A stretch of 64,000 nt of DNA from Corallium rubrum (taxonomy: Eukaryota > Cnidaria > Anthozoa > Scleralcyonacea > Coralliidae). This document shows, piece by piece, positions 24,930 to 61,256 of the stretch; positions within the stretch are counted from its first letter, which is position 1, and each line of letters begins with the position of its first letter. The stretch covers positions 9,099,866-9,163,865 of the forward strand of contig OZ036013.1 of NCBI GenBank assembly GCA_964035015.1. Direction: 5' to 3'. The position numbers and the translations under genes are program-made. The notes beneath the pieces are model-generated. The model was not told where the DNA came from. It saw nothing but the letters and a program-made list of their open reading frames with translations, and did not search any database.

Positions 24930-25051
24930 ATTTTGTAAGTGGATTACGCACAGTGGTTGTTCCGGTTGAGCTAATGAGGAAGTTTATCGCACTTGCTTCA
25001 CCAAATACGCGACAAAACCGCGAGACATGTGGTATTTTAGCTGGAAAACTA
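24930..25051 (+). CDS. AMSH/STAMBP-like deubiquitinase, JAMM domain exon (first part)
   Basis: The exon lies between a splice acceptor (TTATTTTAG ending 24929) and a donor (GTAAGT from 25052). After two bases completing a split codon it encodes FVSGLRTVVVPVELMRKFIA then LASPNTRQNRETCGILAGKL. This matches the start of the MPN+/JAMM domain of STAMBP/AMSH (VVVP, LASANT and ETCGIL blocks). The Glu of ETCGIL is the catalytic-base Glu of the family. The product is a zinc metalloprotease that cleaves Lys63-linked ubiquitin chains at endosomes in partnership with ESCRT. Start phase 1, end phase 0. The continuation is the exon at 61119-61256. Upstream exons (MIT and SH3-binding regions) were not found. 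Confidence 0.93.
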
Positions 25052-25276
25052 GTAAGTAAAATTACGTTTGTTGGTTTTTATTCCCGCAGTGCACCGATGC
25101 GCTCTTATATTGCGACAGAACAGAATAACCTGAAGATAACTGCTGGGCGTGGATTACAGATAAATTTGCTTATTACGGTCTGCTATACATGGAGTCACTT
25201 CATTGGAAAGATAGATATATTTAAACATTACTGTATTAGGTGGCACGTGTTTAGTTCAAATGGTGTAATGTATTAT

Positions 25277-25813
25277 ATTTAACAATTTGACAACGAGACC
25301 GAGTTTTCTATGAGCTTATAGTCAACGAAGCGAAGCCGAGTTGACTATCTGCTCGTAGAAAATGAAGGCGAGTTGTCTAATTGTTTTAGTATCAACCATA
25401 AGCAACTTTTCTTTAACGTAAATAACTCTTATCACACATTCTTCCAACTTTTCAGATAGTTTTACCTTTTTATTTGCAGTAGTCTCCCCATTCAAGGTGT
25501 AGAGTAGTTCGATGGCACATGATAAACAATCGCTCACAAAAAAACGAGGTTGTAATTACTTTGCTTTAAATTTGGTGTTGATATACTCCGTCGACATAAG
25601 CGAATTAATTTTCTTATTCGAAAATGTCAAGCTGAACAATTTTCCATTACCTTTGTGCCAATGTTTTCATGATTTGGTCAGAATAGGAGTATTCCAGGTA
25701 TAAGAAGGTTTATCATTGGATAACGCTACTATGGTCTATCGCCAATAGACCACTAGTAGCTCAGCCAATCAGAAAGCCGGATTTGTAATAGACCGCCAGT
25801 TGGTTGATACTAA
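25277..25813 (+). repeat. Dispersed fold-back repeat, copy B
   Basis: Second copy of the block at 339-960, better than 85% similar by eye. Its first ~95 bases form a clear hairpin: TATAGTCAACGAAGCGAAGC faces GAGTTGACTATCTG near 25316-25352. It ends at TTGATACTAA, 13 bases before recognisable LINE-2 sequence, so it probably truncated or inserted into that LINE. No gene is inside. Confidence 0.82.
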
Positions 25814-26090
25814 CGTATATTATATCATGGCCTTCGTTCAGCAATCGAAAATGTAAATTTGACATCCCTTCTCGACCCGTTGGTTGATATCAACGTAAAT
25901 TGGACACGCTGGAAAAACACCTTCGAAAGCACAGTGTCGAAGTTTGTACCAACAAAACGTTTTAAAACAAGAAACGGCCCACCATGGATCACTGGTCAAC
26001 TCTTTCGTGCTATCCACAAGAAAGAATCAGCGCGCAGAAAACTGAAACATTCTTTCAGCGAGTACATGGTTGAAAAATATAGACAATTAA

Positions 26091-26253
26091 TTAAGAAATA
26101 GAAAACGAGTCGCGTGCTTTTATGGAGTAATAACGGCACAAGGAAGTTGAAAGAACACGAGAGAAGCGTGCAAAACACGAGGCGATACCCGAGTGCCGTT
26201 ATTACTCCATAAAAGCACGCGACGAGTTTTTCTATTTCTTTTATAAAATATAC
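26091..26253. repeat. Palindrome near the left end of the Crypton-like element
   Basis: TATGGAGTAATAACGGCA near 26132 faces TGCCGTTATTACTCCATA near 26202, and the match extends outward to AGAAATAGAAAACGAG / CGAGTTTTTCTATTTCTT. Arms are about 47 bases around a ~60-base loop. Confidence 0.92.
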
Positions 26254-26521
26254 TAAGAAATAACACAAGCAAACATTTTATTCGTAAAGATCAAAATGTA
26301 AATTCTCCCTAACGTGAGAAATGTACACGTCACGAACACGCTTGTCCGGAACAGCTTGCTGCTTGCTCTGAACGAATTCAACGAAGAGTTAATAAACGAA
26401 CGATGGACGTCTAATTAATAACAGTTTTAAAATAAGTTGTCGCTGAAAACTTTACAGAAATGTGAATGTAGTATTGAACAAGTTAACGTAACAGACCATC
26501 AGTCTAATGTTTGCAAGAGAA

Positions 26522-28146
26522 TCACCGATCGTCACTGGATTTAATTACGATTTGGACATTTTCGATGGAGCAAGAACTAAACATACTACCAGCCATGGAG
26601 AAACTCTGTGCTTTGGTAGACGTTACTGCCACGTTTGCTAAAGAAGTATGGTTATCGATCGAAGGCTGAAGTGTATTGGACTGATCAGTATAAACTGGAT
26701 GGCCAGGGATCAGAGAACGAGACAAAACATCGCTGCAGTTGCGAAGTTGTGATGTAGACGGACGTGCGTTGTAATGAACCAGACTTTGTTCATTTCGATG
26801 ACCTGAGATTGTCTTGATATGTCGATTTGGAATACCAGCATTCGACCAAACTGTTATTGCCTTCGCTGTAACACTGTGGTTTGTGTAGACCATCGAAAGG
26901 CCAGCTGCTTTACTGATATCGGCCATCATTTTTCCCAATTTGTTGATACCGAGTGGCCGATTTTCATACCAGACTTTCTTCGACGACTTCCAGTTTTTGC
27001 CGACGGGATACTGAAAAAAGAGCAGAGCAGTTGGGGTTGACTTTTTGTAGGTAGAAAGCCAGGGCTTTGTAGCCATCAACAGGTTGGTCGGTCAGATACA
27101 TTCTTGCCTCCTTTTCGTTGCTTGAGACATCGTTTAAACCACCAGGATGAGTTTTTTTGATTGCTCGTCGTGGGTCATCTTAACGTACCATTGACCAGAA
27201 CTGTCAACTTCAAATGAGAAGCTGTTTACCGTGAGAGAACGCTGTCCTTCGCGACCTCTTCTGCACCAGTAGAGAACGACGTGAAACCATACACAGTGGA
27301 GAAGAGAAAGGAGTTAGCTAAGATTAAACACCTCGCTGGTTTTCAACTTGGCAAGGTCTTCTTGTTCGAGCGGCGGTTTGTGCTGAACGTTTTCTTTTCC
27401 ACTTTGCTTCAGCTGTTTTATTTTGGCGTCTAGCATCTGGTTTGACCTTGTAGACCTTGGGTTGGAGGTAATTTTAATTCCCCTGTTGAACGGCGGAGCA
27501 TTCAAGTACCTTTCTACGCCTTGTCTGAAGCCAACCAGCGCTGATTTGCTGTATTCTTGCTTGTCTCTTGTCCTGGCTTCGGCGTAGAAACGACGGAGGT
27601 TTTCGTCCAGTTGACCAATCGTCATATTCTCGATTTTAGTCAAGATATTTTTTTGATTGCACCATTCTAAATGTATGGAACAGTTTTCATGGTCAGGTAC
27701 TGTTTAAAACTATTGTGTGCATGAATACAAACAGGTGTATTATGTATAATTTTTGCAGCGAAAACTGAAATAGTTTTTTTTTAATAAGGAAACGAACAAG
27801 AATTTTAGTATAAACAAAGTTTGTAGTTTTGACGAAACAATGTATGTACAAAATGTTTTAAAACTGCAATGTACAGTTCACATAACTCATAAGTTTAAAA
27901 ACCTTCATTACAATAATAAAATAAAATTTACGTACCTTGAAAAGCCGAAATTGCCCGATTCGTTGCGTTTTTGGTTGCTTTTGAGTGCCGGTTGTCCAGC
28001 AAAACGTTTAGCTCCGGCTCCGAGGGAGCAGCAAATCTTCCTTTTTCTGAGTGAACGCGTCGTCTTTTTTCGACAGGCTCTGTCGTACACATTATATTTA
28101 ACGTTTGAGTTTCGTAGTCCACTGAACACAGTTTGTTTTTACTCAA
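26522..28146 (-). pseudogene. Crypton-like tyrosine recombinase (DUF3504 type), broken
   Basis: Exon 1 (28146-27936) starts at ATG and encodes KRRRVHSEKGRFAAPSEPEL then SKATKNATNRAISAFQ. A 269-base intron follows (GTACGT donor, TTTAG acceptor, 27667-27935). Exon 2 from 27666 continues EWCNQKNILTKIENM and LDENLRRFYAEARTRDKQEY, the SAM-like core-binding domain. After a TAA at 27314-27316 the frame reads VLYWCRRGREGQ, which carries the first catalytic Arg. A T7 run (27152-27158, plus strand) shifts the frame. The catalytic part has VYTNHSVTAKAITVW, SGHRNEQSLVHYNA and the Tyr. The HxxR motif reads HSVT, so the second catalytic Arg is lost. Related host genes carry the same DUF3504 domain, but the broken frame argues for a dead transposon. 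Confidence 0.82.
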
Positions 28147-28202
28147 TTTCGTTTTGTCAATATTAGAAAAAGTCGCGTTTATAAAAGCGAGTCAAAACCG
28201 TG

Positions 28203-28412
28203 TTTTGTTTAACAAATAAAACATAAAGCTCCGTGCATATGTACTCTTATAAAGGCACGTTTGACGTCATTTGAACACGAAAGAAGTTGAGTAGAGGCAC
28301 GAGGCGATAGCCGAGTGCCTTTACACTTCTTTCGTGTTCAAATGACGTCAAACGTACCTTTATTAGAGTACATATACACAGGAGCGGTATGTTTTATTTG
28401 TTTTATAAAATA
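28203..28412. repeat. Palindrome upstream of the recombinase gene
   Basis: Arms of about 95 bases are nearly identical in inverse (GACGTCATTTGAACACGAAA on the left; TTTCGTGTTCAAATGACGTC on the right), with outer ends AACAAATAAAACAT / TGTTTTATTTGTT. It lies 57 bases upstream of the recombinase ATG, so it could hold or block the promoter. Confidence 0.92.
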
Positions 28413-29670
28413 AGAAGGAGAAAAACCAAGCTAAAAGTGAGGTAGTTTTGGAATTTGGCGGGCTTTTCTGGCCAGCTGACGCCATTCTACGCCACTTTAC
28501 GTCATTCATGGTCTATGTTCTCTTATAAATGCACGGAGTCCAGCCAATCAGAGCGTGCGTAGAGGACACCTTATTTTATAATGAGTTATAACGAACGGGT
28601 ATTAACCAATCAAATTGCCCGATGTATGCTACCTATTTTATAAGATCCGATGTTAAACGCATGATCTCGGAGGCTCCGGATAACTTCTTCGCTTCGCTTG
28701 CTGCTGATTTGATGAAGAATCCAAAACGCTTCTGGTCAGTATTTAAACTCTCGTGGAAAAAAGCAACCTTGCCAAAGTTCATCTCTTTGGCAAACACCGC
28801 CGGTAACCATAACAGAATTGTTGCTTCTAACCCAAACAATATTACTGAACTCTTTTACCGCTATTTTATCGCAGTCTTTCACCTTATCAATAACTTTGCC
28901 TCAGAATCTTTCCACCGAAACAACCTTATCAATAACTTTGCCTCAGAATCTTTCCTCAAACCAAAATACGTTATCCAACATCGATCAAACAACCGAAGAC
29001 GTTTTTGCGGCTCTTAAACTGATTATTAGATGAGCATAAAGCGACGTGACCTGATGGTATACCAAACAGAATCCTGAAGGAAACTGCTGCACAGATAGCT
29101 CCCTCACTTTGTTTACTATTTAACCTATCTTTACAATCTGGTACCTTTCCTGAAGAATGGAAAATTGGAAACATTGTTCCTGTTTTCAAGAAAGGAAACA
29201 AAGAATTTTCAGAGAACTATACAGGCCAATTTCTCTTCTTTCAAACGTGTCGAAATTACTCGAACGTTGCGTTTTGGAAAAAAATAGAGACCACCCGCTT
29301 AATTTTTTTAATCCAAATCAACATGGTTTTATTCCGGGAAAGTCTTGTACCACAGACCTAGTCCAAGTACTGGAATATATTGGTCAGCAACTTGAGAACG
29401 ACAAGCACACTGATGTTGTCTACTTAGACATGAGTAAAGCTTTTGACAGGGCGTCCCACAGTCAGATACTCGAAAAGTTGCGAGAAATTAACATCGGCGG
29501 TAGTCTCCACTACTGGGACGTAAACAACGTGTCGCCATACCTCGAGCAACCTCATCTTCACTGCCTGTAACATCAGGTGTACCACAAGGATCGATCCTGG
29601 GACCAATTCTTTTATTGTACGTGAATGACTTACCAGACTCCGTTGTATCGTCAAGCGTACGCACAAGAAG

Positions 29671-30164
29671 GCGCGAGAGACATGAAGCGATTAATAGGAG
29701 AGGATGCGACGAATTTTCCCGTCAAAATAAGGACTATGCGGGCTAATTAAATATGGTCTGAGCTAAAGGATTAAATTGTCACATATATTTCAAGGTAAGC
29801 GTATTTTCAGTAGTTTTTAGTTTTTATTTCACTGTTGACGAATAGCGCGCCAAGCTATAGAGTCGAACTGGAGATTCTCTATTCTCTTAAGGTTTGTATG
29901 ATATTAGCGGCTCAGGTATGATGAACGAAGGGCACTGAATGCATAAACTTTCTTAGCCGATAAACTCAGTTCTGGGCTGCCTGGTTGTGATCTGTTCACA
30001 ATCATTGTCTTTTGTTTTGGTTAAAACAAGCTAATAATTCTCATCTTTTTTTGGCTTCTCGTGGTTTGGACAAAATCACAAGTCGCAAACGACGTGTTTC
30101 CCATACACTGCATTTAAGTCCAGTTATTTAGTGTCAACTCTCAAGCCTGCCACAAAGTACTACA
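29671..30164. other. Unassigned sequence
   Basis: Nothing could be assigned between LINE-2 and the endonuclease fragment. Confidence 0.35.
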
Positions 30165-30627
30165 AGAACACCATATGGAACTGCTGTTTATTTAAAAAAT
30201 AATCTACAATGTGTGTCTGAACCCTTGAGGTGTAACCATAATGATGTTGAAATAACAGTTATTAAAATTGATCAGCCAGTTTACAATTTACACATTGTTG
30301 GAATTTATCGCTCAAAATCTAAAGTAAAGATTTCTAAATTAATTGATGCATTAAAATTTCTTCATGAGAATATTTTAAAACATTGTGATACCCCTGTAAT
30401 TATGCTTGGTGATTTTAATATAAATTTAATGGAAAATTCCCCAGAGAAAAAAGCTCTATCTAAATATCTTAGTGAACAAGAACATTATGCACAGCTTGTT
30501 AATGAAGTAACAACTGACTATAAAACTCAATTGATCATATTTACACAAATATCCCTCAAAGAATTTACTGTAGTGGTGCTCTTGAATCTTACTTTAGTGA
30601 TCATAAACCTATCTTTGCATCTGTAGC
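30165..30627 (+). pseudogene. APE-type endonuclease fragment
   Basis: Encodes VYNLHIVGIYRSKSK, TPVIMLGDFNINLMEN, then after a frameshift near 30530 LDHIYTNIPQRIYCSGALES and SDHKPIFASVA before a stop. The GDFN and SDHKP blocks are the usual end of the APE endonuclease fold. The stop directly after the SDHKP block means the domain is C-terminal, unlike in LINEs, where RT follows. Helentron-type rolling-circle elements carry such a C-terminal endonuclease; that is the best guess, but no helicase is attached. Confidence 0.6.
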
Positions 30628-31086
30628 ATGATTCATTTACTTAAAATATGATAAGTTAACAAAAAAATGTACAATATACATTATCTATAGCTATAAGAGC
30701 GATTAAATACCATAGAGTGAACAGTACATGTATACTGAACAGTATTTAAAAATTCCTAAAATTTATTTGTCAATCTTTTTCTCCAAATACAAACAAGTCA
30801 CCTCAACCGCTTCGCCAGCCTAGTGGCAGGGGTAAATATACCCCTATTGGATAGGGGACCAGAGGCTGAACTATAGCTGGCCCCTCTTTTCACTGGCAGG
30901 AACAAGGTGTGTTATAGGTAAGTCTTCTTTTAATTGTTTACCCTTCCCATTCACTTAGTGTCACATAATCGGATTAAAAATAATTTACTGATTAACTGAC
31001 TAATTTTCTCAATTTACATTCCAGCTAAAAGTTGAAAAATGGTACACGATTGGTAATCAACCTACTGTAACTTAAGGAGTGAAAAT
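30628..31086. other. Unassigned, with strong stem-loops
   Basis: 30820-30905 contains nested GC-rich inverted repeats, for example GGGGTA/TACCCC and CCTATTGGATAGG near 30834-30866, and GCCTAGTGGCAGG / CACTGGCAGG as a direct echo. These could be element ends. No gene is seen. Confidence 0.35.
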
Positions 31087-31592
31087 TGGTAAAACTATTT
31101 TTTGACAATGTGGAACCAAAGCCGAACAATGATTACGCCGTTCTTCCCTACATCAAAGGACTAACAGAACCATTAAAGCGACTACTAAAACCACACAACA
31201 TCCAAGTTACAACAAAACCTCTCCGCACATTAGAACAAATATTTCCGTCAGTTAAAGACAGACCATCCCCGGAAGATCAGACCAACGTTGTTTATCAAAT
31301 TACCTGCTCAGATTGCTCATGGAGCTACATTGGTCAGACAGGAAGAACCTTCAACACCAGGAGAAAAGAACATAAAAGAAACGTGGAACAATGCAAAAGT
31401 GGATCAAACATCGCAAACCATGCTTGGACGAACGATCACCGAATAGACTTTGAAAACGGCAAGATAATTGACAAAGGCAACTATCGGCACAGAACAACCT
31501 TAGAATCTTGGCATACCGCAATCACGAAAAACTCAGACAACAACTCAAAGCATATGCCGGAACAATACCGATTTTTAGTCAAGAAACTTTAA
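31087..31592 (+). pseudogene. Penelope-like element 1: GIY-YIG endonuclease region
   Basis: The frame reads through 168 codons without its reverse transcriptase. After KDRPSPEDQTNVVYQITCSD it has CSWSYIGQTGRTFNTRRKEH, the GIY-YIG nuclease core (VYQI, then YIGQTGR, then Arg and His). Downstream SNIANHAWTNDHRIDFENGK and KNSDNNSKHMPEQY match the rest of the domain. In Penelope-like elements this nuclease is fused C-terminal to a telomerase-related RT and cuts the target. The RT part is missing, so the copy is 5'-truncated at about 31080. A hammerhead-like segment lies 120 bases downstream. Confidence 0.85.
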
Positions 31593-31712
31593 CTAATTAA
31601 TGATGCAACTTAGCGATCTATTCGTTTAGGCGGAACTGTCACTATATCACCTCCTTTGTCCATGTATGTAATTGTAAACTGTCATGTATGTCGTCATATC
31701 CATTCATTGTAA

Positions 31713-31756
31713 TTCACCCGTCGAAGGCTGCAGACTGGCAGCCGAAAGCTCGTAAC
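31713..31756 (+). ncRNA. Degenerate hammerhead-like motif of Penelope-like element 1
   Basis: CCGTCGAAGGCTGC, then GGCAGCCGAAAGCTC. The stem II hairpin (GGCTGC/GCAGCC) and GAAA are present. The CUGANGA box is altered (CCGTCGA) and no GUC follows GAAA. Position after the GIY-YIG ORF matches the two better hammerheads below. Not expected to cleave. Confidence 0.45.
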
Positions 31757-31849
31757 TCGAATAAATATTATAAACCAGAGAACGTTGTCAACATTAATAT
31801 GAATAATCCTGGTTTCGCATCCAACATCTTTAAAGGTTTTATTCAGTTG

Positions 31850-32325
31850 GATGTCAACTAAAGTCATGTCAAAACCAAAATAATGTACTTGTCAAACGGT
31901 GATGGCTCTGCCTATGGATGAATGTCTCTCATGTTACCATGCGATGAACTAATATGCCTCAAAGCAGTTATAAAAGACCCTTTATTTACAAGTAATATTT
32001 GGCATTTCACTTGATTAAACTGGATGTTCTATGCATGTTCGTTGCAACTGAAGTCATGTTGAAACCAAAATACTGTACTTGTCAAACGGTAATGGCTCTG
32101 CCTATGGATGAATGTCTCTCGTGTTACCATGCGACAAACTAATACGCCTCAAAGCAGTTCATAAAAGACCCTTTATTTACAAGTAATATTTGGCATTTCA
32201 CTTGATTAAACTGGATGTTCTATGCATGTTCGTCGCAACTGAAGTCATGTTGAAACCAAAATACTGTACTTGTCAAACGGTAATGGCTCTGCCTATGGAT
32301 GAATGTCTCATGTTACAATAAATGC
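31850..32325. repeat. Tandem repeat, ~190-base unit, 2.5 copies
   Basis: AAGTCATGTTGAAACCAAAA recurs about every 190 bases (31862 in variant form, 32051, 32242), with GGCTCTGCCTATGGATGAAT in each unit. Units are more than 90% alike by eye. Confidence 0.92.
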
Positions 32326-35284
32326 TCTGTGCCAACAGTCTGCATATAGATACCCATTGCAGCTTATAAACCTTCAAAAGATAAAAAAAACTGTACATTC
32401 ATGTACTGTATAGCAATGACAAAAATTACTTACTGACTACTCACAGAACGAGGAAAATTTTAGCTCTACTAATTAATGCTGGATTAACTGTTCATGAATA
32501 ATGTAAACTAGAACTAATACAGCAGTTAAATTGAAGCGTGTAACTATCGGAAAGATTTTTTCATACTGTATCCTCAAGACTTTTCATTGAATTGTACATG
32601 TATCGTCCAATTTAAAGCAAAATAAATCATTTGAATGTAAAAAGCTCAAGTGTTGTTTTTTATGTCGAAATGCAGTACTATTAATTGCTCTACGAAACTT
32701 TGCACTATCCTTGGGTTCTAGTTCTGTACACTAGCTGTCGTACGGTTTGACTAGTTCCCAGGTATAAATGTCGAAAAACAACCTCGGTCTACCAGTTCAA
32801 TGATGAGGGCATGGGAGCTCATAGACTTTCTCAAAGTCCTTTTCAAACATTCTTGACCTTTCGGTTCCTCGTTGAAAATGACTTTTCCCACCTGCAGCGC
32901 GCCAAAATTCACAGGTGAATTTTTCGAGCGGTGACGTAATTCGGGAAGTAATTATATTTATGCTAAATTGCTATGCAAGTGCTATCTTTGGAAGTTGAAG
33001 TTAAACAGACTCTTGGAAACGTTTTAGTAGGGGTAGAACCACTTTCCATTGCATGTACGACAACCCGAAACACGTCAAAACAGGGCGACGTACATTTCAG
33101 CGATTTCCCGCCAGAATATTTAATTAGATTAAAAAACCTGCAAGCGAAACAAGTCCGCCTCTTTCCTCCCGCTTTCCCCCTCTCTCGCCTTTCCGCTCGC
33201 CCGCAAAAACTAGCGCTAAGAGGCGGACCTGGAGCAAGTCTAGGGAGCTCAGTGAATGTTACGTTTTCAAACCGGCGCACATTACTACATAAATTACATA
33301 TAAGACTACAGTCATAATTTTGCTATTCTTTACATTAATGTTTAAAATAACAAGCAGCACTCTGCCCATGGTTGCTGATTTGAATCGGGTATTTTGGATC
33401 TTTTCCAGATCTTGTTTTATGGAACTATACTATAGTATCCTTACAGTACATAATTATGGCTTCTTCTTGTTGAGCGCTAGTTAGAGAAGCCGCTATTGGT
33501 GACGTAAGCTGATTTCTTGCGTAAGAAGAGTGTTAGTAATATCAGTATGTCTGTGTAGTCTTGGTGATTAAACTAAAAAGAATTATTTTATATAAGAAAG
33601 TTTATAGTCTTACACCATGTTATAAATTTTTTTTAATAATTTAATAAAATTTCATAACATGGTGTAAGGCTACAAACTTTCTTATATGAAATATATTTTC
33701 GCCATGCAAAACTTCAAACAACAAAAAGAAGTGTGACAGTATTAAAATAAAAGTAAGAAGTAAGTATGCATTAAAAGTATAAAGATGTACTCAACTGAGA
33801 AACACTACAGAAAAATTCACGTTCGAAAGCTGTTTTTCTCAAACTAGTTTATTATGTATATGTATTATTTATCAAAACTATATAATTATCATTAATCAAA
33901 TATCACAAACACTATATCGTGAATTGCGATATGATTACATCATTAAATATTAACTAAATTAGGGTACAAACAATCACAGTTAAGTAATTATTACTTAAAT
34001 CTATATTTATACTTACCTATATATATTTCAATAAATGTAATCCCAGTATTTTAATAGAAAGGTACCATACTCACAGCAAGCATGTGTCTTAGCAATGTTT
34101 TTACATAAATTATTAATGATAATAATTAATGAGGGAAATCTAAAAAAATTGTCAAAATTCAATCAATATTTGTAAATGCGAATAAAACCTTGACTAATAT
34201 AACAATGTCGTATCCAAGTTAACCGATATAGTAGAACATTGCTTTAACCGTGTAAAATTATTTGTTTTTGTTTCTACGACGTCGAAACACTTTATTCATT
34301 CTACTCATGACTGGGCATTTGCTAATTAAATATCTCAAACTCATTAATAACTCATGAGTTAATTAGCCAATTAAAGAAAAAATATTTGATCACGTGCGTG
34401 AGTTCTGAAACCCTGGTAAAGATCGCATTAACTGAATTCATAATTAAGAAATCAGATAATAAACGACGAAAACAAACAACCGTTTGTTACTACATTTGCA
34501 TTCTTAATTATAAATTCAACATGAGACCATTGGATACTAATATAATACTCTCGATTTCTTTCTTAGACGGTTGAGCAAATCTAGCCACCATGTTTGAAAA
34601 GTACATTGCGAAAATTAGTTGCAGTAACAAAATATTGTTGCTGCACATTGTCAGAAAATTATCTGCACTATGGATATTCGCAGTTGAATTATCAAATTAA
34701 ATCTCGGAATAGAGACGGATTCAATAAGAGAATAGAAAAATATTCGAGTGCGATGTTTATCTCACATCCTTATATAGGTTGGTCGCTCATATTTTATCCA
34801 TTACTTGTAACACTCAGCAATAATTGATGAAGAAAAGACAAAAGATATTTTCTATGCAAGAACGACAACTTATCATATTTGAAGGAGGGAGCTACACATA
34901 ACTAACTCGATTTACATACCATGCAATTAGCGAATGTGGGAGGCCTTGGTTTGGCACATGCGCATTGATTAATATAAGTTCCACATTTGCTATGTGGAGA
35001 CGCTCCTGTCGTACCTTATTCGAGATGATTGTGTCAAGGTTCCAGAAATTGGGCAACTATATTGCTCATCATAAATTCATGATCAAGGCATCAAAACAGA
35101 TAGCGACCTCGTTCTTGATGTCACTATCTAGTTAGATACCATGAATTTGTAATCAACAACTTAATTTACTCGGTTTAGTCTGGCCATCTTGGGAGTGTAT
35201 AGGATACACATCGCTAAAAAGAACAATAAGAATCGACTAAAATGAGCTATTAACTACAGTATGAGTTCTGTTGTCATTTCAAAT
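32326..35284. other. Unassigned AT-rich sequence with small inverted repeats
   Basis: No gene is supported. 33588-33692 is a palindrome (ATAAGAAAGTTTATAG, TTACACCATGTTAT and their inverse) with ~42-base arms. 33148-33225 has inverted AAGTCCGCCTCTT / AAGAGGCGGACC ends, and 48885-48960 has a diverged version of the same small element. A frame at 32973-33317 overlaps this and has no recognisable homology. Confidence 0.4.
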
Positions 35285-46524: not shown

Positions 46525-46531
46525 TGCCTTA

Positions 46532-50588: not shown

Positions 50589-51985
50589 AACCTCCCTGCT
50601 GCTAAAGTTGTATATTCAAGACAACAACTTTTCAACTTACGTTCTATAAATATTCCCTTCCGCCTGACCTTTACATTTCCTTAAAAAGTGAAGGATTTCT
50701 CAAAACCCATCGTACTCGTGCTGGAAAATCGGTCAATTCCTCCTCCAGAATTTTTAAAATTCAAACTGTTCATCGTCCACGTGATCATAACCCAACGTTC
50801 AGTCTTGGTCGTACTCGTGGCTCTAATCTAAACAATCTGATAAAAATCAAATGCTCTCCTTCTCAGCCGTTGGCTTCCAACCCACTTCATTTCTGTATAC
50901 TGAACGCAAGATCTATAAATGGAAAAACCTTACAAATTAAAGATTATGTAGTGGACAGAGAAATTGATGTTCTTGCTCTTACAGGAACTTGGTTGAAACC
51001 TGATAGTGATAACAATCCAGATTTTATCATTCGTGACCTTTGTCCAACTGGGATGTTCTTCAATCACATTCCTCTTTTAAATCGCATTGGCGGTGGTATT
51101 GGGTTACTCTACAAGAAAATCTTTAAAATGGAACATCTTAAATCTTCATCTTTTCGATCCTTTGAAGTTATGGAAGCAATGCTTCATGGCACCTCATCTG
51201 TCACACATATTGTAATTGTCTACCGACCGCCACCTTCATCAAATAACGGCCTCACGCACACTTTATTCTCTAATGAATTCCCATCATTTCTAGAAAGTGT
51301 AATTTCTTCACCTGGTGAACTTTTTATATCTGGCGACTTCAACTTTCATGTAGAAGATAATTCTGATAGTATGACATCAAAATTTCTGGATATTCTACAC
51401 TATTTTAATCTTACCGTTCATAATATCACGATTCCCACTCACAGAAACGATCATGTTCTAGATCTTATCATCACAAGGTCTGATGAGACAACTGCATTCA
51501 ATGTATCTGTTCATGATCCTGTCACATCAGATCACTATGCTGTTCACTGTAACATGAATATCAACAAAATACCCAATCCCAAAAAAGTTGTCTGTTGCCG
51601 CAAAATACGTTCTATAAATCTTGATGTTTTTTGTCATGATATTATTAATTCGTCCTCATGTCAATCTCCTATGTCTGATTTAAAAGATTTATGTAATCAA
51701 TATGATGATGTGCTGTCATCAATCCTAAACAATCACGCTCCCCTACTTACCAAGACTCTCCCAGCGTCCCAAAGCCCCCTGGTATACTGAAAACATTAGA
51801 AACAATAAAACAATTCGTCGAAATCTAGAAAGACAATTTCGTCGCTCTGGTCTTCAGATTCATCGTCAATCCTACGTTGATCAATGTGTCCTTGTTAAGA
51901 AACTTATTTTTGAAAAATGAATTATTATTCCAACCTTATTACTGATGCTGGTTCTGACAACAACGCTCTTTTTCGTTCTATTGAT
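50589..51985 (+). pseudogene. LINE-3 APE endonuclease, first copy
   Basis: LHFCILNARSINGKTLQIKD, then VLALTGTWLKPDS (the usual ETWL Glu is Gly here), GGGIGLLYKK, HIVIVYRPPP, LFISGDFNFHVED, HVLDLIITR and TSDHYAVHCN. The endonuclease is otherwise well preserved. A frameshift near 51760 breaks the linker. The last 600 bases (51386-51985) are repeated at 54689-55294 in the same orientation, on the far side of a 2.7-kb Penelope-derived block. Confidence 0.88.
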
Positions 51986-52883
51986 TAAGGTACCCAAAAG
52001 TGTTGACATCTATACAGACCACAATACCAATTTATACACTTCCACTTATACATACATCAAACAATTTACTATTTATATCTTGACATTATCCCACAATTAC
52101 CTCCAAGGACAATGACTACCCCTGTTGTCGGCACCACGCACGCTTCACTGTGACCTGGAAACGAATGACGCAACACTACTTTGCAATGTGGCGAGCCTGG
52201 ATTAGCTCTCTCCTTTCGCTACGGGGGTATCACAATTTTTATAAAGGTTTATGTGTAGTTAATGGGAACCACATTGGAGTTTTAGTCGTGTAATGTTGTA
52301 TAATAAGGGCGAATTTGAATGAAGGGCGCAATTAGCCTCCGGCTATGTTGCGTATGAAAGGCGACACGGAGCACGCTGTTGACAATGTTTGAGAATGTCA
52401 GTAGTGTCTTGGATGTAGGAGGTTACGTGGGGGATGAGTGAGTAAAGGGCTATACACATGGAAAAATAAGAGCTTGTAGTCAACTGGCATAAGAATTTGC
52501 TCTCTTTAACTATAAGCTTTACATGTGGTGTTTAGGAATGTCGCTGTCAGTCACAGTAAAACTACACAATGTGGCGAGCTTGGAAAAGCTCTCTCCTTTC
52601 GCTACGAGGTTATCCAGATTTTTTATAAGTTTGAGTGTAGTTAATGGGAACCACAAAGGAGTTTTAGCCGTGTAATGTTGAAGAATGAGGGAGAGATTAG
52701 AAGGGAATTTGAATAAAAAGCGCAATTAGCCTCCGGCTATGTTGCGTATGAAAGGCGACACGGAACACGCTGTTGGACATGCAGTGTAAAAATACTGTTT
52801 AAGAATCATGAAAAAACATCAGAAGAAGAAGAATTAAGGACTTGTAACGTATAGTATAGTGCAATCAGGATCTTAGGACTCAA

Positions 52884-52925
52884 CCCTGGACGCGTTTCGA
52901 CCTTCTGGTGGTCTCATCACCAGGG
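52884..52925 (-). ncRNA. Hammerhead ribozyme, altered copy
   Basis: Minus-strand mirror of the ribozyme at 54381-54422. Stem I (CCCTG/CAGGG), stem II (GACC/GGTC), GAAAC and GCGTC are intact, but the CUGAUGA box reads GTGATGA. The changed first C normally pairs with a core G, so activity is expected to be lost. Confidence 0.75.
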
Positions 52926-54380
52926 ATTTGGGGTTGGGAGTCAATGTAAATATCAAGTTAATTGTTGGAAGATAAATAATAATCGCTATCAACACAATAA
53001 TATTAGAGGAGAATAAAAGTGAGTGCTTACCAAACTTGTTGTGTGTTTTACGTAGTCCAACGCATTTGAAAATCTTGGAGTAGAGTAGGAAGGTAGCAGT
53101 GTGTAGAATTCTCGTAGCAGTTTAGTAGGAGAAACAAAGAATCACTTTGCCAGTCTTCAGATATGTAGTGAGGGTGTCCGTATGTAAGAGAAGGGTTTAG
53201 TTTTACTGTGACGAACAATGACATTCCTAAACGCCATGTGTAAAGCTTATAGTCAAAGAGAGCAAATTACTTTGCAGTTTGACTTTGAGCCTTTATTTTT
53301 CCGTATGGCCTTTCCATCTCCCTTTCCCCACATACCCTCCTACATCCAAGACACTACTGACATTCTCATACGAACATTTTCCCTCAAAACAACTCACCTA
53401 CTGATTTGATACTTATTACTGTCAATAGCTTGTATACAAACATATCAAATGACTAAGGCACATTTAAGCCTGCATTGATATGCTTAAAATACACAAGATA
53501 GCTGACATACATTAACACAAAATACATTACTTTTATACCTCCGCCTTTACCTACATCCAATAATTAATACTAATATCCCTACATAATCCTACAACTATCC
53601 CTAAGGACAATGACTATCCCCTTAATTCCTACAACACTTACGCACTTCTCACTGTGACCTGGAAACGAATTACCCTACCCAACAAATATACCTGTACCAA
53701 CAAAATAACTCTAGTTACACCTATAGAATAATTATACCGACTGTTCAATGACATGACATACAATTTCCTTTTGGCCACAAACTAATACAAACACACTGAC
53801 ATACCTACTTCCCAAAATACACAACCCAACATACCCATACTTTTTTCTATTAAAGTCAATAGCTTATACACAGACATATTAAATGATGAAGGTGTTAAAA
53901 CCTCCGTTGATATGCTTAAGGTACCCAAAAGTGTTGACATCTATACAGACCACAATACCATTTTATACACTTCCACTTATACATACATCAATTTACTATT
54001 TATATCTTGACATTATCCCACAATTACCCCCAAGGACAATGACTGCCCCTGTTGCCGGCACCACGCACGCTTCACTGTGACCTGGAAACGAATGACGCAA
54101 CACTACTTAACCCTTCTCTTACATACGGACACCCTCACTACATATCTGAAGACTGGCAAAGTGATTCTTTGTTTCTCCTACTAAACTACTGCGAGAATTC
54201 TACACACTGCTACCTTCCTACTCTACTCCAAGATTTTCAAATGCGTTGGACTACGTAAAACACACAACAAGTTTGGTAAGCACTCACTTTTATTCTCCTC
54301 TAATATTATTGTGTTGATAGCGATTATTATTTATCTTCCAACAATTAACTTGATATTTACATTGACTCCCAACCCCAAAT

Positions 54381-54422
54381 CCCTGCTGATGAGACCACCA
54401 GAAGGTCGAAACGCGTCCAGGG
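54381..54422 (+). ncRNA. Hammerhead ribozyme, canonical core
   Basis: Stem I CCCTG (54381-54385) with CAGGG (54418-54422). Core CTGATGA (54386-54392), stem II GACC/GGTC with a 7-base loop, GAAA, then ACGCGT-like minimal stem III and GTC with cleavage after 54417. This is the compact arrangement known from Penelope-like elements. All core bases are present. Confidence 0.88.
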
Positions 54423-54688
54423 TTGAGTCCTAAGATCCTGATTGCACTATACTATACGTTACAAGTCCTTAATTCTTCTTCTTCTGATGTTTTTTCATGA
54501 TTCTTAAACAGTATTTTTACACTGCATGTCCAACAGCGTGTTCCGTGTCGCCTTTCATACGCAACATAGCCGGAGGCTAATTGCGCTTTTTATTCAAATT
54601 CCCTTCTAATCTCTCCCTCATTCTTCAACATTACACGACTAAAACTCCTTTGTGGTTCCCATTAACTACACTCAAACTTATAAAAAAT

Positions 54689-57010
54689 CTGGATATTCTA
54701 CACTATTTTAATCTTACCGTTCATAATATCACGATTCCCACTCACAGAGACGATCATGTTCTAGATCTTATCATCACAAGGTCTGATGAGACAACTGCAT
54801 TCAATGTATCTGTTCATGATCCTGTCATATCAGATCACTATGCTGTTCACTGTAACCTGAATATCAACAAAATACCCAATCCCAAGAACGTTGTCTGTTG
54901 CCGCAAAATACGCTCTATAAATCTTGATGTTTTTTGTCATGATATTATTAATTCGTCCTTATGTCAATCTCCTATGTCTGATTTAAAAGATTTATGTAAT
55001 CAATATGATGATGTGCTGTCATCAATCCTAAACAATCACGCTCCCCTACTTACCAAGACTATCTCCCAGCGTCCCAAAGCCCCCTGGTATACTGAAAACA
55101 TTAGAAACAATAAAACAATTCGTCGAAATCTAGAAAGACAATTTCGTCGCTCTGGTCTTCAGATTCATCGTCAATCCTACGTTGATCAATGTGTCCTTGT
55201 TAAGAAACTTATTTTTGAAACTAAAATGAATTATTATTCCAACCTTATTACTGATGCTGGTTCTGACAACAACTCTCTTTTTCGTTCTATTGATCGTCTT
55301 CTTCACAGAAAGCCTGAGAAACGTCTCCCATCATGTTCTTCTACTACAGACCTGGCCAATGACTTTGTTAACTTTTTCAAACACAAAATCACCACAGTTA
55401 GAAGTCAATTCCTTGACTGTTCTACTTCTTCAAATTATAATTATTTTTACTTATTAGATACCCCGTTACTGAACTCTGAACTTACCACTCTATCTGAGAC
55501 GTCAATAGAAGAACTATCAGATATTACAAGAAAAGTGATATCCAAATCATGCTGCCTAGATCCACTTCCCCGTAGTCTAGCTCCTTCCCAATCTGTTCAA
55601 TACACTTCTACCTACTATCTGCAAAATCGTCAACTTGTCCCTCGAAAGTGGTTTTGTACCTACTTCCTTAAAATCAGCTGTTCTGGCTCCGTTACTTAAA
55701 AAATTTTTTCTTGACCATGAAGTTTTTGGTAATTTCAGGCCGATTTCGGGGCCAACCTGAAAGTTATCTCTAAAATCATCGAAAAGTTGTGGGTGTCCGA
55801 CTACATGAACCTCTCCAGTCTGCTTACGAAACATTTCATAGCTGTGAGACTGCTCTCATCCGTGTCCAAAATGACATACTACGTGCTATTGACGACCGAT
55901 GCTGTGTGGTTCTTCTCCTTGATTTAATGTCTGCTGCATTTGACACTGTAGATCATGATATTCTACTTGAACGTCTAAAATCCAAATTTGGTATCCGTGG
56001 TAATGCACTTAAGTGGTTCAGGTCTTACGGTAAAAGATCGGAAATTTTTTTTTTAAATGCGGTGTTCCTCAAGGATCTGTTCTTGGACCAATCCTATATC
56101 TGTTGTATACCTCACCAATTGGTGACATCTTACGACGCCATAACATGCTGTTTCATTTATATGCCGATGACACTCAACTCTACGTATCCTTCTCTTGCAA
56201 TGATGATCTCAACCTCAAACGCACTATGATGAACATTGAGAATTGTTTATCAGATATTAACAATTGGATGTCTTTTAACAAACTAAAATTAAATAAGGAA
56301 AAAACTGAATTACTCTACTTCTATTCCAAGCATAGCCCCCAAAAGACCTTTACTCCACTCCGATTTGGACCCGACCTCATTCAACCATCTAATTCCGCAA
56401 AAATTATTGGCGTTATTTTTGATAACACTATGTCGATGTATGCCCATGTAAACTCTGTTTGTAAAACTGCCTTCTACCATCTTCGTAATATCGCTCGCAT
56501 AAGGACATTCCTATCTGTAAAGACCACCAAAACCTTAATCCATGCATTCGTCACATCCAAAATCGATCACAACAATTCTCTCCTATGCGGCCTTCCAAAA
56601 AATCTTATAAAAGACTCCAATCTGTACAAAATGCTGCTGCCCGTCTTATCACTTTTTCCTGCAAACGTGATCACATCACTCCTATCCTTATGGATCTTCA
56701 TTGGCTACCGGTTGCAGAATGTATCAAGTTTAAAATCCTCATTCTTACATTCAAATCTCTTAATGGCCAAGCTCCTGTCTACATCTCCGACCTGATTACA
56801 CGCTACATTCCACGAAAAGCTCTCCGCTCTTCGTCCGAAATTCTTCTCAACCGTGTCAATTTTAATCTACTCTCTTATGGCCATCGATCCTTCTCCGTTT
56901 TCGCCCCTGAACTCTGGAACACTTTACGTAGAAGCATCAGATCTTCCCCAAGTCTTTCTATTTTTAAATCCAAAATCAAAACACATCTATTTAAGTCCGT
57001 CTTTAATTAG
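54689..57010 (+). pseudogene. LINE-3 second part: endonuclease end, linker and RT
   Basis: Repeats the endonuclease end, then APWYTENIRNNKTIRR, and reaches the [42 protein letters not shown] (motif A), [14 protein letters not shown] (motif C) and [18 protein letters not shown] are present. The C-terminus reads [20 protein letters not shown] and FAPELWNTLRRSIRSSPSLS, stopping at 57008-57010. This is a CR1/L2-lineage RT. Breaks are near 55690, 55760, 56035 and 56590. The 5' end of this part is a recombination junction, not a natural truncation. Confidence 0.9.
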
Positions 57011-57095
57011 TTTTGAGCTTTTATAACCGCCTAGAGCAGACCTGGATAGGCGCTATATAAATTAATAAATAAATAAATATTATATTATTATTATT
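57011..57095 (+). repeat. LINE-3 3' UTR and (AATA/ATT)n tail
   Basis: Ends with GGCGCTATATAAATT followed by AATA units and ATT units, the short microsatellite tail usual for CR1/L2-type LINEs in place of poly(A). Confidence 0.8.
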
Positions 57096-57239
57096 AATCT
57101 AGTAAATTAGTGGCATATATATCATGCGCATTCCCGATATTATCTTAAATCTCTTCACCAACGTTGATATAATTTCATGTATACATCTACGCCAGGCATT
57201 AGATTGGTGGTGACAGGAAGCGCGTTTTGAAACGATTTG

Positions 57240-58690
57240 TATCCGGTTTTCAAAATTTAAAAAAAAAAGGCATATCGTTATTCGTTATCATTCAACTGCA
57301 AGAAGTAAATTTATATTTATATATAGATAATTTCAAAAATTTTCAGAAAATTACAGAAATCAAAGACCTTGGCGTTCGTCGAACCCTCTATTTATCCATC
57401 GTTCGACGTCACTTTGGCTACGCAACCCAAGTATGGTCTCCACAATCGGTGGAATCAGTCAAGCGTATCAAAAGAGTCCAACGTCGAGCAACCAAAGTCA
57501 TTCTTAATCTTCCATTTCGTTCTTCTACAAGTCGTTGGGATGATGTTTGACCACAATTTTAGACGATCGGAGTACTTCACCCCAAACCCCTTCTCCCACA
57601 AAACTTTGTGTGTGTGCCATTAGTGTTTGCTTGATTGTTCGGCCTTTCCTTTTAAAGAACCGCTTGAATCATTGACATAAGATGAAAACTATTAGAAGTG
57701 TAAATCACCAGATAAGTAGTTATGAAATAAATAAAGTGTATCTGAGTTGTTCTGATGACAAAAGATACTTATTAGAATATGGCATTAATAGTTATATATA
57801 TATGGACATAAGAAAATAAAGTTCCAAGAAATTATGGTCACCTTTAGAAAATATGCATTTGTCGATTAAGCGACTTTAGGAAAACGCTATTATGGCTTTA
57901 GTTAAAGAAGTACTTACAGAAATAAAAAAGGCAGTATAGCGACTGTCCTAGTAAAACATAAAAAATATAGACGGTAAACCTCTGTCGGTGTATAGTAAAT
58001 GGCAGTACGAGCATATCTTTTTATTTTTAGCATCTGTAGCACTTTTTATTTCCATATGAGAAGTCACTTCAGTTTTTCACTTATTGATTACCTGTTTAGT
58101 GGAGAAATTTATATAAGAGCGTTAATCTAATTTATAAATCCTTTTGTAAATGCTTTTTTGGTGGGAATATTATAAAAGTAAACAGGTAATCAATAAGTGA
58201 AAAATTGAAGTGACTTCGCATATGGAAAAAAAGTGCTACAGGTGCCTAAAATAAAAAGTGGGCTCGTACCGCCATTTACTATACTACTAACCTAATTCCT
58301 CTCTCATACTGGCATGAATATCTTGATTTGATTTTCTTCTTCAGTGCTGTTAACGGTCTAGCATCATTGATCTTCAACTCCTACCTGTTCCATACCAACC
58401 AAAACGAATAACCAGATTCTACGCATCTCCCGAACTTGTTCAATTCCTGCCACCAAAATGTAAAACTCTCACTTTTCAACGCTCATTTTTTTCAAGAATG
58501 TGCAGAACGTGGAATGTCCTGCTAAATGAGTTGAGAGTGAATTGAGTAACACTCAACAACTTAAAAAATCAACTTATATCTTACTACACTCTCGCGCTGG
58601 ACTGTGCATACAATCCAGATAAACCTCGGTCATGGACATCAGTTTGTCCCAAGTGCAACTCCGCCCGGAGCTTGCTTGGTGACCTTCGCT
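57240..58690 (+). pseudogene. LINE-4 C-terminal region, split by a fold-back element
   Basis: 57355-57530 encodes ITEIKDLGVRRTLYLSIVRR and HFGYATQVWSPQSVESVKRI with RRATKVILNLPF. After an interruption of about 760 bases the protein resumes near 58300: LSYWHEYLDLIFFFSAVNGL. With frame changes it then reads KTLTFQRSFFSRMCRTWNVL and CPKCNSARSLLGDLRCCT before the stop. The ending matches LINE-1, so they are the same family. The RT core is absent (5' truncation). Confidence 0.82.
57991..58285. mobile_element. Fold-back element within LINE-4
   Basis: 57991-58103 and 58168-58285 are inverted copies (CACTTATTGATTACCTGTTT and AAACAGGTAATCAATAAGTG; outer TATAGTAAATGGC). The loop is 65 bases. The insertion may begin earlier (57545), since LINE-4 homology is missing from there. 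Confidence 0.88.
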
Positions 58691-58961
58691 GTTGTACTTA
58701 ACAGCTTTTACTATGCGGATTTTCATCGTTTTTTTATTTATTTTTCTTTTGATCTTGATTGAACTTTTTTCTTTTTTGTTTGTTTTCCCTCTTAATCTAT
58801 TTATATACGGGACCGCAGTAACTGCCACACGCTGTCGCGGCTACCCTTGCCACTTCTGTTAAATTTTTGTTTGTATATGTGCATGTTTGTCTGTCATTTA
58901 ATTATGTATATATTTATTTGGGTGTAGATATAAATATTCGTTATACACTGTTGGCAAAAAC
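58691..58961 (+). other. LINE-4 3' UTR
   Basis: Contains GGGACCGCAGTAACTGCCAC and GTCGCGGCTACCC, which resemble GGGCCCGCAGTAATTGGCCA and GCGGTTACCC in the LINE-1 3' UTR near 18146. This is followed by the AATA tail. Confidence 0.7.
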
Positions 58962-58976
58962 ATAATAAATAAATAA

Positions 58977-59028
<52 letters not shown>

Positions 59029-59031
59029 ATA
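58962..59031. repeat. (AATA)n tail of LINE-4
   Basis: About 17 AATA/TAAA units after the LINE-4 UTR, probably an expanded 3' tail. Confidence 0.93.
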
Positions 59032-59692
59032 CGCAAGAAGGAGTGTTTGATCTGTTGTGTTTGAAGGTGTGTTGAAAACGCACGCACTCATTTACTCACT
59101 CATTTACTCGCTCACTCTTGCAAGCGAGAGAAAGCAACCACAAACGTCGAACTTTATATTAAACAAAATACTTTACCAAACATTTTTATTTGGAAATATC
59201 TGAACGCTATTCGGATATATATCACAAGTCGTTTATAAAGATATGAAAGGCTATATACGAAATAGATCACCATTTTCATTATTTACATGTTTCAGAGTGA
59301 AGCGATGTAGGCAATACAGCAGCTTTATTATATCCGCCAGGAGGCTATGTTTTCATGCACCTCTGTTTGTTTTGCCTGTCCATCTATCGCCAGGATATGT
59401 CGCAAAGTACTGTACAGGTTTCCATGAAAGTTTGTGGAAAGATTGATCATAGATCAAGGAGCAAACATTAAAGTTTGGTTTGCTCACAGGGTCCTCTCTT
59501 TACACTTTCGTGCCTATTTCGCATTGCGTGCCTATTTTTATCCGACGGTCACAAACCCAGTACAACGCATACAGCAGGTGATGCTATATTATCCAATAGG
59601 ACGATGGTAAAACACAACGTACCACGTGACTTGTACATACGGTGAACATACAAATATAGAAAATTAACTACAAGATGCACGATGCATGCATG
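59032..59692. other. Unassigned sequence
   Basis: Short tandem CACTCATTTACTCACTCATT near 59083. A 67-codon frame at 59243-59446 has no recognisable homology. Confidence 0.35.
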
Positions 59693-60702
59693 CAACCTCG
59701 TACCCAGTTTCTTATCTTCGCCCCCCCGCCCACCGCTGCGAAAAGACCCTGGTTGCCGCTGGTCACGTTCTACTTAAAAAAAAGGGGTGGTGGTAATTAA
59801 CGATTCAAAAAAAACACACTCCGGGAGGAGTGACAAAGGAACAGTTGCAACCGCTTCACCTTTTTGTTTATATAAATATACTTATGTCTGGCGTCGTTGT
59901 CTGGCGCCGGACTGCCTGATCGCAAAATATTTGTTAAAATTAAAACAACAAGAAAACAAACGTACTCGGTGTTGACAAAACATATGTGGCTTTCTTCTTT
60001 GGTGTACGTCGCGAAAAACAGAAGATCACGTTGAATCCAAAAGTTAAAGAAACCCGGAAGAAGATATACCAATCGACTATTATGCACCGTCGAATACGTG
60101 TCGGCTTCATCGTAGTGTTGGCGATGTGAACTAACTTAAACATTTGTACAACAAGGCAAATTTTGAACTGCTTTACTCGGCCGAAATGCGCTACGGCAAA
60201 CGACTTCCTTGTAACGGGTGCTCTTCCTTGTTTAATCTGAAGGCCATGTGAAAGAAGATTGCAAAATTTCACAAAGTTCAAGACGTCGATTTGCGAGAGT
60301 CAAACCTCTTTCTCTCACATTAAAAAATGCAATGACATTTCAGCGTCTGCCCAGATAACCGCGGCGAAAAGTGCCGAAAGAATCGATTCAGGAAAGATTG
60401 CAACTATATACAGCAGCAAGCCGACTGTCCTTTGAACACGCGCATTTGTTATCAACAGAAACTCATGTAAATGCAGTTGTTGAATCGAGCCTTTCATTCT
60501 TTTTATTAAACTTATAGTTCGCCTAAATCTAATATCAGATTTTAGAATTTGAGCATTTAAACTGGACTTGTGTAGCATTGTCATTGAGTGTGCAAATTTG
60601 TTTAGGCGGCACGTGACCAACAACAACCAGGGTCTTTCACAGCAGTGGGCGAAGGCGCGGAGGAGGGAGGGGGGCGGAGGTAAGACCCTGGGTACGAGGT
60701 TG
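59693..60702. mobile_element. TIR element with ends CAACCTCGTACCCAG, ~1 kb
   Basis: Ends 59693-59770 and 60595-60702 are inverted (CAACCTCGTACCCAG, GACCCTGGTTG, GGTCACGT). Same outer ends as the element at 36035-36867, but the interior differs. No transposase is recognised; open frames inside are not homologous to anything I know. Confidence 0.8.
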
Positions 60703-61118
60703 GATGACATGGTGCCTTATCAGGCAGACACAAAAATCTGAGCGCAAAATTCTCCGTATATGGAAGAAATGCTTCATTGCGCTCATTAAAAATAAGGATT
60801 TTATGTTTGTTTTGTTTTTGTATGGGTGCAATTAAGGATTTTATTCATTCATACATGGGTATACCTTTGTTAGCGAGATGGTGTGTTTTCTTTTTAAAAA
60901 CATAATTGTAACCCACTGGCGGAAGAATGCAGTCTCTGAGTGCCCTCTTGTTGTGTAGTGACATTAATGCCCAAATCAAACGAGTGATTGCCAATTCGAC
61001 GAAGCGGGAGGTCAATTTGTTATGTTGTTCACGATTGCGCCGTAATAGTTACAAGCAAAGCTGCAATGGGTGGTGTAGTTTGTAATGTATATATATTTCT
61101 TTTAATGTTGCTATGTAG
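60703..61118. other. Intron sequence before the second AMSH exon
   Basis: No repeat or gene is recognised; a pyrimidine-rich tract (TATATTTCTTTTAATG) precedes the splice acceptor CTATGTAG. Confidence 0.5.
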
Positions 61119-61256
61119 AGCCAAAATATCTTCAATGTCACACATTTGATAATCCCGAAGCAAACATCAACTTCGGATTCGTGTACCACATTAAACGAAG
61201 AAGAAATCTTTATGTACCAAGATTCTGACGAGTTGATCACCCTTGGTTGGATTCAT
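61119..61256 (+). CDS. AMSH/STAMBP-like deubiquitinase, JAMM domain exon (second part)
   Basis: 46 codons between acceptor CTATGTAG and donor GTAAGT (61257): [40 protein letters not shown] and TLGWIH. This is the STAMBP block FTITHVLIPKQ...NEEELF...LITLGWIH. The last His is the first zinc ligand of the JAMM motif (H-x-H). Joined to 24930-25051, the catalytic Glu is 55 residues before it, equal to human STAMBP E280 to H335. Both ends are phase 0. The following THP block with the second His and the Asp ligand must be in a later exon, which I did not find in the remaining 2.7 kb. Confidence 0.94.

What the first reader, a model, noticed from the sequence alone, without database searches (positions are those of the whole stretch)
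24930..61256. AMSH/STAMBP JAMM domain split by a 36-kb transposon-filled intron
Two short exons with clean splice sites, 36,067 bases apart, join in phase 0 to give the family sequence. The catalytic Glu to zinc-His distance (55 residues) equals that recalled for human STAMBP. This is the only host gene I can support, and short exons like these are easily missed. The intron hosts at least ten distinct mobile elements.
Basis: partly seen in the sequence, partly recalled or inferred. Interest (0 to 1): 0.75.

Follow-up and report, generated by a model that had tools for sequence, protein, structure and literature searches.

The report
Coral ubiquitin-enzyme gene with giant introns
The two short exons belong to a real and apparently complete gene for the endosomal ubiquitin-cutting enzyme AMSH in what looks like a soft-coral relative; the enzyme is ordinary, but introns carrying many mobile elements stretch the gene to about 290,000 bases.

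Summary
Confirmed and extended. The exons at 24930-25051 and 61119-61256 have canonical splice sites, lie 36,067 bases apart, join in phase 0 and match human STAMBP at 9e-28. The window is C49:9099866-9163865 of a 474-Mb assembly. Nine more coding exons, including the missing THP...D exon, lie in order on the same strand of C49. The model encodes 410 residues over 289,603 bases, with 10 of 10 introns GT-AG, a USP8_dimer domain, a STAM-SH3-type motif and the full JAMM site. A whole-genome search scored eight of these exons and only one other place, at noise level. The closest named relatives are octocorals. Seven of ten introns exceed 16 kb, against 1 of 26 adjacent myosin-head exon gaps in the same genome. 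The introns carry LINE, Penelope-type, tyrosine-recombinase, Helitron and Polinton-type genes. The enzyme is an ordinary ortholog; the size of the gene is the notable feature. No transcript data were available.

The parts
24930..25051 (+). AMSH exon 7 (122 bases; catalytic Glu E264 in ETCG)
   Evidence: AG/GT borders, phase 1 in and 0 out; tblastn 69-81 bits class hits to octocoral AMSH
61119..61256 (+). AMSH exon 8 (138 bases; ends at zinc ligand H319 in WIH)
   Evidence: AG/GTAAGT borders, phase 0; tblastn
25052..61118 (+). AMSH intron 7, 36,067 bases
   Evidence: lies between the two exons; GT-AG
1..24929 (+). 3' part of AMSH intron 6 (54,345 bases in all, begins outside the window)
   Evidence: exon 6 at C49:9070406-9070449
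61257..64000 (+). 5' part of AMSH intron 8 (19,658 bases in all, ends outside the window)
   Evidence: exon 9 at C49:9180780-9180892
26525..27091 (-). tyrosine-recombinase ORF in intron 7
   Evidence: Phage_integrase 6.1e-05, below Pfam cut-off
28592..29567 (+). LINE fragment in intron 7
   Evidence: no Pfam match; similar to the LINE at 14744-17746
30132..30623 (+). LINE-type endonuclease ORF
   Evidence: Exo_endo_phos 0.0017, below cut-off
31083..31589 (+). GIY-YIG ORF, Penelope-type
   Evidence: GIY-YIG 0.0015, below cut-off; similar to 43072 and 46451
43072..43686 (+). GIY-YIG ORF, Penelope-type
   Evidence: GIY-YIG 9.8e-06, above cut-off
44424..45152 (+). reverse-transcriptase ORF
   Evidence: RVT_1 1e-07, above cut-off
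45523..46620 (-). LINE C-terminal type ORF
   Evidence: no Pfam match; weak similarity, 6.5e-05, to the LINE ORF at 16868
46451..47212 (+). GIY-YIG ORF, Penelope-type
   Evidence: GIY-YIG 0.0052, below cut-off
50606..51787 (+). LINE endonuclease ORF
   Evidence: Exo_endo_phos_2 1.3e-08
54581..57007 (+). second LINE copy, several ORFs
   Evidence: 54581 is 92% identical to 50606 over 133 residues; RVT_1 8.9e-15 at 56034 and 1.1e-04 at 55774
57203..57547 (+). LINE fragment
   Evidence: no Pfam match; 56% to the LINE ORF at 16868 over 57 residues
8719..13947 (-). Helitron genes in intron 6
   Evidence: Helitron_like_N 1.2e-31, PIF1 4.3e-26; ORFs
14744..17746 (+). LINE in intron 6
   Evidence: Exo_endo_phos_2 8e-15, RVT_1 3.7e-20

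Best explanation
The two exons are exons 7 and 8 of the AMSH/STAMBP ortholog of an octocoral-like cnidarian, apparently single-copy. The gene has 11 coding exons over 289,603 bases of contig C49, and most of its introns were probably enlarged by mobile-element insertion. Ordinary GT-AG splicing across very long introns would give a 410-residue enzyme with an N-terminal USP8_dimer/MIT domain that would bind ESCRT-III, a STAM-SH3-binding motif, and a zinc JAMM domain that would cut K63-linked ubiquitin chains at endosomes. Shown here: exons, order, phases, splice sites, open frame, domains, catalytic residues, and the absence of another scored copy. Inferred: transcription, splicing, enzyme activity, and insertion as the cause of the intron length.
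For: Exact exons and splice sites. Eleven exons in order with 10 of 10 GT-AG introns and matching phases. USP8_dimer 5.9e-22 and JAB 6.4e-20. Human STAMBP catalytic chain 5.4e-67 and N-terminal chains 2.5e-32 and 2.6e-32. E264, H319, H321, S329, D332 in place. 62.7% identity to Dendronephthya AMSH over 424 aligned positions. Eight of nine genome-wide matches are these exons. Mobile-element genes in introns 6, 7 and 10.
Against: No transcript was available. Taken alone, exons 5, 6 and 11 have weak matches (best E 0.92, 0.31 and 0.10) and were not among the genome-wide matches; they rest on place, frame and phase. Exons 3 and 4 are weak (E 0.188 and 1.3; exon 4 is 4.65e-04). Introns 1 and most of the start of intron 3 were not read, and two masked stretches lie in the fetched region. 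The start codon is one of several nearby in-frame ATGs.
Confidence: 0.93

Rival explanations
1. The two exons are pieces of separate AMSH retrocopies or duplicated genes that happen to lie on one strand.
For: They are 36 kb apart and each is weak alone in Pfam; the region is full of retroelements.
Against: Both end at splice sites with matching phases, whereas a retrocopy would keep exons fused; the other exons lie before and after in order; the only other place scored in the genome was E 0.66.
Confidence: 0.01
2. The gene is a pseudogene killed by insertions, its exons still readable because the decay is recent.
For: Heavy mobile-element load; no expression data.
Against: The 1,233-base frame is open, the catalytic residues and all 10 intron borders are kept, and no other AMSH was scored in the genome although octocoral and other animal genomes carry the gene. 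No dN/dS could be computed.
Confidence: 0.03
3. The intron length is an assembly artefact: repeats were collapsed, expanded or misjoined between exons.
For: Repeat-rich DNA is where assemblies fail; near-identical repeats occur in the introns.
Against: Seven introns are long independently; all exons keep order and strand on a 12.5-Mb contig; the window has no N; a myosin gene on another contig has one exon gap of 67 kb.
Confidence: 0.03

Closest known systems
AMSH / STAMBP, human STAM-binding protein (PDB 3rzu, 3rzv, 9le4, 2xze)
   Same: Both domains match: catalytic chain 3rzv at 5.4e-67 and N-terminal chains 9le4_A and 2xze_A at 2.5e-32 and 2.6e-32; JAMM residues and the PxxDRxxKP motif align.
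   Different: About half the residues differ; gene length here is 290 kb. The human gene structure was not examined.
AMSH-LP / STAMBPL1 (PDB 2znr, 2znv, 7l97)
   Same: Same catalytic family: 2znr at 1.4e-63; same Glu-His and His-Asp spacing.
   Different: Human AMSH-LP lacks a functional STAM-binding motif (passage of PMC9313428); this protein has a motif of that type and scores slightly higher against STAMBP.
Octocoral AMSH proteins (Xenia sp. P0002, Dendronephthya gigantea P0003)
   Same: Closest named relatives: 79% and 77% over the two exons; 62.7% over 424 positions to Dendronephthya.
   Different: Their gene structures and intron lengths were not available here.
Transposon-expanded long introns, as in axolotl (PMC2633012, listing and opening of abstract only)
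   Same: Conserved genes with introns far longer than usual.
   Different: Here the genome is 474 Mb, and long introns are concentrated in this gene compared with 26 myosin gaps.

Membership tests
AMSH/STAMBP deubiquitinase | MPN+ JAMM motif E-xn-HxH-x7-S-x2-D | tested here: met
   E264, H319, H321, S329, D332; motif as given in PMC9313428 (passage)
AMSH/STAMBP deubiquitinase | Catalytic domain of AMSH type rather than Rpn11, CSN5 or BRCC36 type | tested here: met
   STAMBP chain 5.4e-67 against 2.7e-07 for the best Rpn11-like chain
AMSH/STAMBP deubiquitinase | N-terminal MIT / USP8_dimer domain | tested here: met
   PF08969 5.9e-22; human STAMBP N-terminal chains
AMSH/STAMBP deubiquitinase | STAM SH3-binding motif of the PxxDRxxKP type | tested here: met
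   PIIDRAIKP at residue 221 aligned with PVVDRSLKP of human STAMBP; the motif pattern itself is recalled
AMSH/STAMBP deubiquitinase | Second, non-catalytic zinc site of the Ins-2 flap | tested here: met
   H334, C375, H381 and H383 align with His, Cys, His, His of human STAMBP; which residues form the site is recalled
AMSH/STAMBP deubiquitinase | Cleavage of K63-linked ubiquitin chains | not testable with these tools
   needs an enzyme assay
AMSH/STAMBP deubiquitinase | Expressed, spliced transcript | not testable with these tools
   no transcript data held
AMSH-LP/STAMBPL1 (vertebrate paralog) | Loss of a functional STAM-binding motif, as in human AMSH-LP | tested here: not met
   a motif of this type is present

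The most novel reading that the evidence does not exclude
A conserved, apparently single-copy endosomal enzyme gene of a cnidarian has become a refuge for mobile elements, and its length (290 kb for 1.2 kb of coding sequence) has a function of its own: it delays expression, depends on recursive splicing, or promotes backsplicing through the long inverted repeats in its introns.
Probability: 0.07. Interest if true: 0.55.

Novelty: new member of a known kind. Interest (0 to 1): 0.28.

Why it matters
It is a clear case of short exons scattered so widely that a gene caller or a fragmentary assembly would lose the gene. The Paramuricea clavata octocoral paper reports a median intron of 382 bases, 35% mono-exonic genes and low contiguity (passages of PMC7467007), so genes of this shape could be missing from such annotations. 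If the long introns are confirmed, they offer a test of how a conserved gene stays spliceable while mobile elements accumulate inside it.

Tried and rejected
Separate retrocopies: rejected; the exons end at splice sites, phases match, and no second copy was scored.

More AMSH exons inside the window: tblastn with nine AMSH proteins gave, besides the two exons, nothing above 28.1 bits; that best extra hit is a charged stretch of the Helitron ORF.

N-terminal exons within the 68 kb before exon 4: none found, since intron 3 is 77.6 kb long; the whole-genome search located them.

tRNA genes and Rfam families at gathering score in the window: none.

A second intron control with kinesin motors (PF00225) did not complete, so the size comparison rests on myosins and two JAB exon pairs.

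Papers holding both 'STAMBP' and 'cnidarian': 0 in the held library. The octocoral intron search (14 papers, all listed) and the long-intron search (12 listed of 125) show no such gene in the titles and abstract openings. Of these I read only passages of PMC7467007. Of the AMSH papers (5 listed) I read only passages of PMC9313428.

Full report
Observation. After a TTTTAG acceptor, 24930-25051 completes a codon and then reads FVSGLRTVVVPVELMRKFIALASPNTRQNRETCGILAGKL, ending at GTAAGT. After ATGTAG, 61119-61256 reads [46 protein letters not shown], ending at GTAAGT. They are 36,067 bases apart and join in phase 0. The joined 86 residues match human STAM-binding protein at 9e-28 and Pfam JAB at 8.9e-11, while each exon alone is weak (0.006 and 0.02). 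In 40 codon-block shuffles of the window the best tblastn score to the two octocoral AMSH proteins was 26.6 bits (default word size), against 69.3-81.3 bits for the real exons (word size 2).

Where it is. The window is C49:9099866-9163865, + strand, of an assembly of 474,352,983 bases in 312 contigs. The closest named proteins among the 120 listed of 793 found are from octocorals, Xenia 79% and Dendronephthya 77% over these residues. The host is therefore probably an octocoral; the species is not known to me.

The rest of the gene. Two octocoral AMSH proteins were aligned by tblastn to 264 kb around the window and the splice borders were read from the DNA. The Xenia protein was also searched against the whole genome, and the N-terminal exons were then read. 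The coding sequence is 1,233 bases with the stop, 410 residues, over 289,603 bases. All 10 introns are GT-AG and all phases match. Intron lengths in order are 49,853, 470, 77,601, 27,478, 4,708, 54,345, 36,067, 19,658, 1,680 and 16,510 bases.

Weak points of the model. Exons 5, 6 and 11 have weak matches by themselves (best E 0.92, 0.31 and 0.10) and were not among the genome-wide matches; they are placed by order, frame and phase. Exons 3 and 4 are weak (E 0.188 and 1.3), though exon 4 reaches 4.65e-04. The start is one of several nearby in-frame ATGs. Intron 1 and the first part of intron 3 were not read beyond the short loci around the exons, and two masked stretches lie within the fetched region; intron lengths are coordinate differences that include whatever is there.

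Membership. The full model has USP8_dimer 5.9e-22 and JAB 6.4e-20. It matches human STAMBP catalytic chains down to 5.4e-67 and STAMBP N-terminal chains at 2.5e-32 and 2.6e-32. JAMM residues are E264, H319, H321, S329 and D332; AMSH-LP has E292, H347, H349 and D360 (passages of PMC9313428), so both distances, 55 and 13, agree. PIIDRAIKP aligns with PVVDRSLKP of human STAMBP; that this pattern is the STAM-binding motif is recalled. The review says AMSH binds STAM's SH3 domain through such a motif and that human AMSH-LP has lost a functional one (passages). Identity is 62.7% over 424 aligned positions to Dendronephthya, 76.3% over 194 and 64.8% over 122 positions to Xenia, and 47.6-49.4% to the five hexacorals compared. 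By these tests it is an AMSH ortholog.

Copy number. The genome search with Xenia AMSH at E up to 10 gave nine matches: eight are exons of this model and the ninth, on C20, is E 0.66. Only the best candidates are scored by that tool, so a very diverged copy is not excluded.

Are the introns unusual here? A Myosin_head search gave 69 matches, with 65 of 125 candidates scored. The 26 neighbouring pairs that are also neighbours in the profile have a median gap of 1,446 bases, and 1 of 26 exceeds 16 kb (67,099 bases). In AMSH, 7 of 10 introns exceed 16 kb, with median 23,568 bases. A rank test gives p = 0.0009, but introns of one gene are not independent, profile gaps only approximate introns (one of the 26 is 35 bases), and this is one family. 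Two neighbouring JAB exon pairs elsewhere are about 1.6 and 0.9 kb apart (C49 near 4.21 Mb, and C53). So AMSH looks expanded against these controls, while the 67-kb myosin gap shows that giant introns are not unique to it.

What the introns hold. Of 15 ORFs of intron 7 put to Pfam, 9 gave a mobile-element domain at E <= 0.01, 4 of them above Pfam's curated cut-off: tyrosine recombinase, endonuclease, GIY-YIG and reverse transcriptase. Of the 6 without a domain, 5 (28592, 29050, 45523, 54581, 57203) resemble LINE ORFs of the same window and 1 (27317) does not; the partner of 29050 was not itself put to Pfam but lies between two domain-bearing LINE ORFs. Intron 6 holds Helitron genes (Helitron_like_N 1.2e-31, PIF1 4.3e-26) and a LINE. 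In intron 10, of nine queries from eight ORFs, three gave matches: an integrase with chromodomain (5.5e-16, 1.7e-12), an A32-like ATPase with a C2H2 finger (1.4e-06, 1.5e-05), and a B-family DNA polymerase (5.4e-48, in one of its two pieces). That is part of the gene set recalled for Polintons; no capsid gene was shown. Of the seven introns whose letters were read in full, 4 to 10, between 9% and 47% is repeated within the 264 kb compared; this is a floor, since copies elsewhere in the genome were not counted. That insertion caused the length is inferred from this content.

Mechanism. From the roles of AMSH in the literature (PMC9313428, passages), the enzyme would be brought to endosomes by STAM and ESCRT-III and would cut K63-linked chains with zinc-activated water and E264 as base. 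Expression requires removing ten introns, seven of them over 16 kb, from a transcript of 290 kb or more. At 1-4 kb per minute (recalled), transcription would take about one to five hours. None of this was tested here.

Verdict. This is a real and ordinary enzyme gene of remarkable size: an annotation hazard and a handle on intron growth, not a new system.

Noticed in passing
C49:9184458-9195722 (loci L011, L012), in intron 10, about 21 kb beyond the window end: Polinton-type genes inside the last AMSH intron: integrase with chromodomain, A32-like ATPase with C2H2 finger, B-family DNA polymerase; five further ORFs there had no Pfam match.
   Followed up: partly
window 6772-10965 and window-relative 159865-164000: The Helitron region of the window has a copy 95.9% identical over 4,200 aligned bases about 153 kb away on C49, cut by the end of the fetched stretch; this suggests recent activity.
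   Followed up: partly
window 52611-53201 and 54105-54695: A 591-base inverted repeat, 99.2% identical between arms, in intron 7; perhaps the ends of a young non-autonomous element.
   Followed up: no
window-relative -47056 to -41641 (intron 4) and -8535 to -5556 (intron 6): Long inverted repeats, 2,025 aligned bases at 95.3% and 1,367 at 98.5%, which could fold in the pre-mRNA.
   Followed up: no
G000:C1:60964717-61031817: A 67-kb gap between two matches that are neighbours in the myosin-head profile: a possible second giant intron.
   Followed up: no
window 37042-37356, 42478-42841, 48219-48760: Three tandem arrays with units of 138-148 bases that share similar sequence, all in intron 7.
   Followed up: no
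window 13168-13550: A 69-base tandem repeat in the ORF upstream of the Helitron domains encodes a repeated QRAERLQVVRQNTAERIESETSE-type peptide.
   Followed up: no
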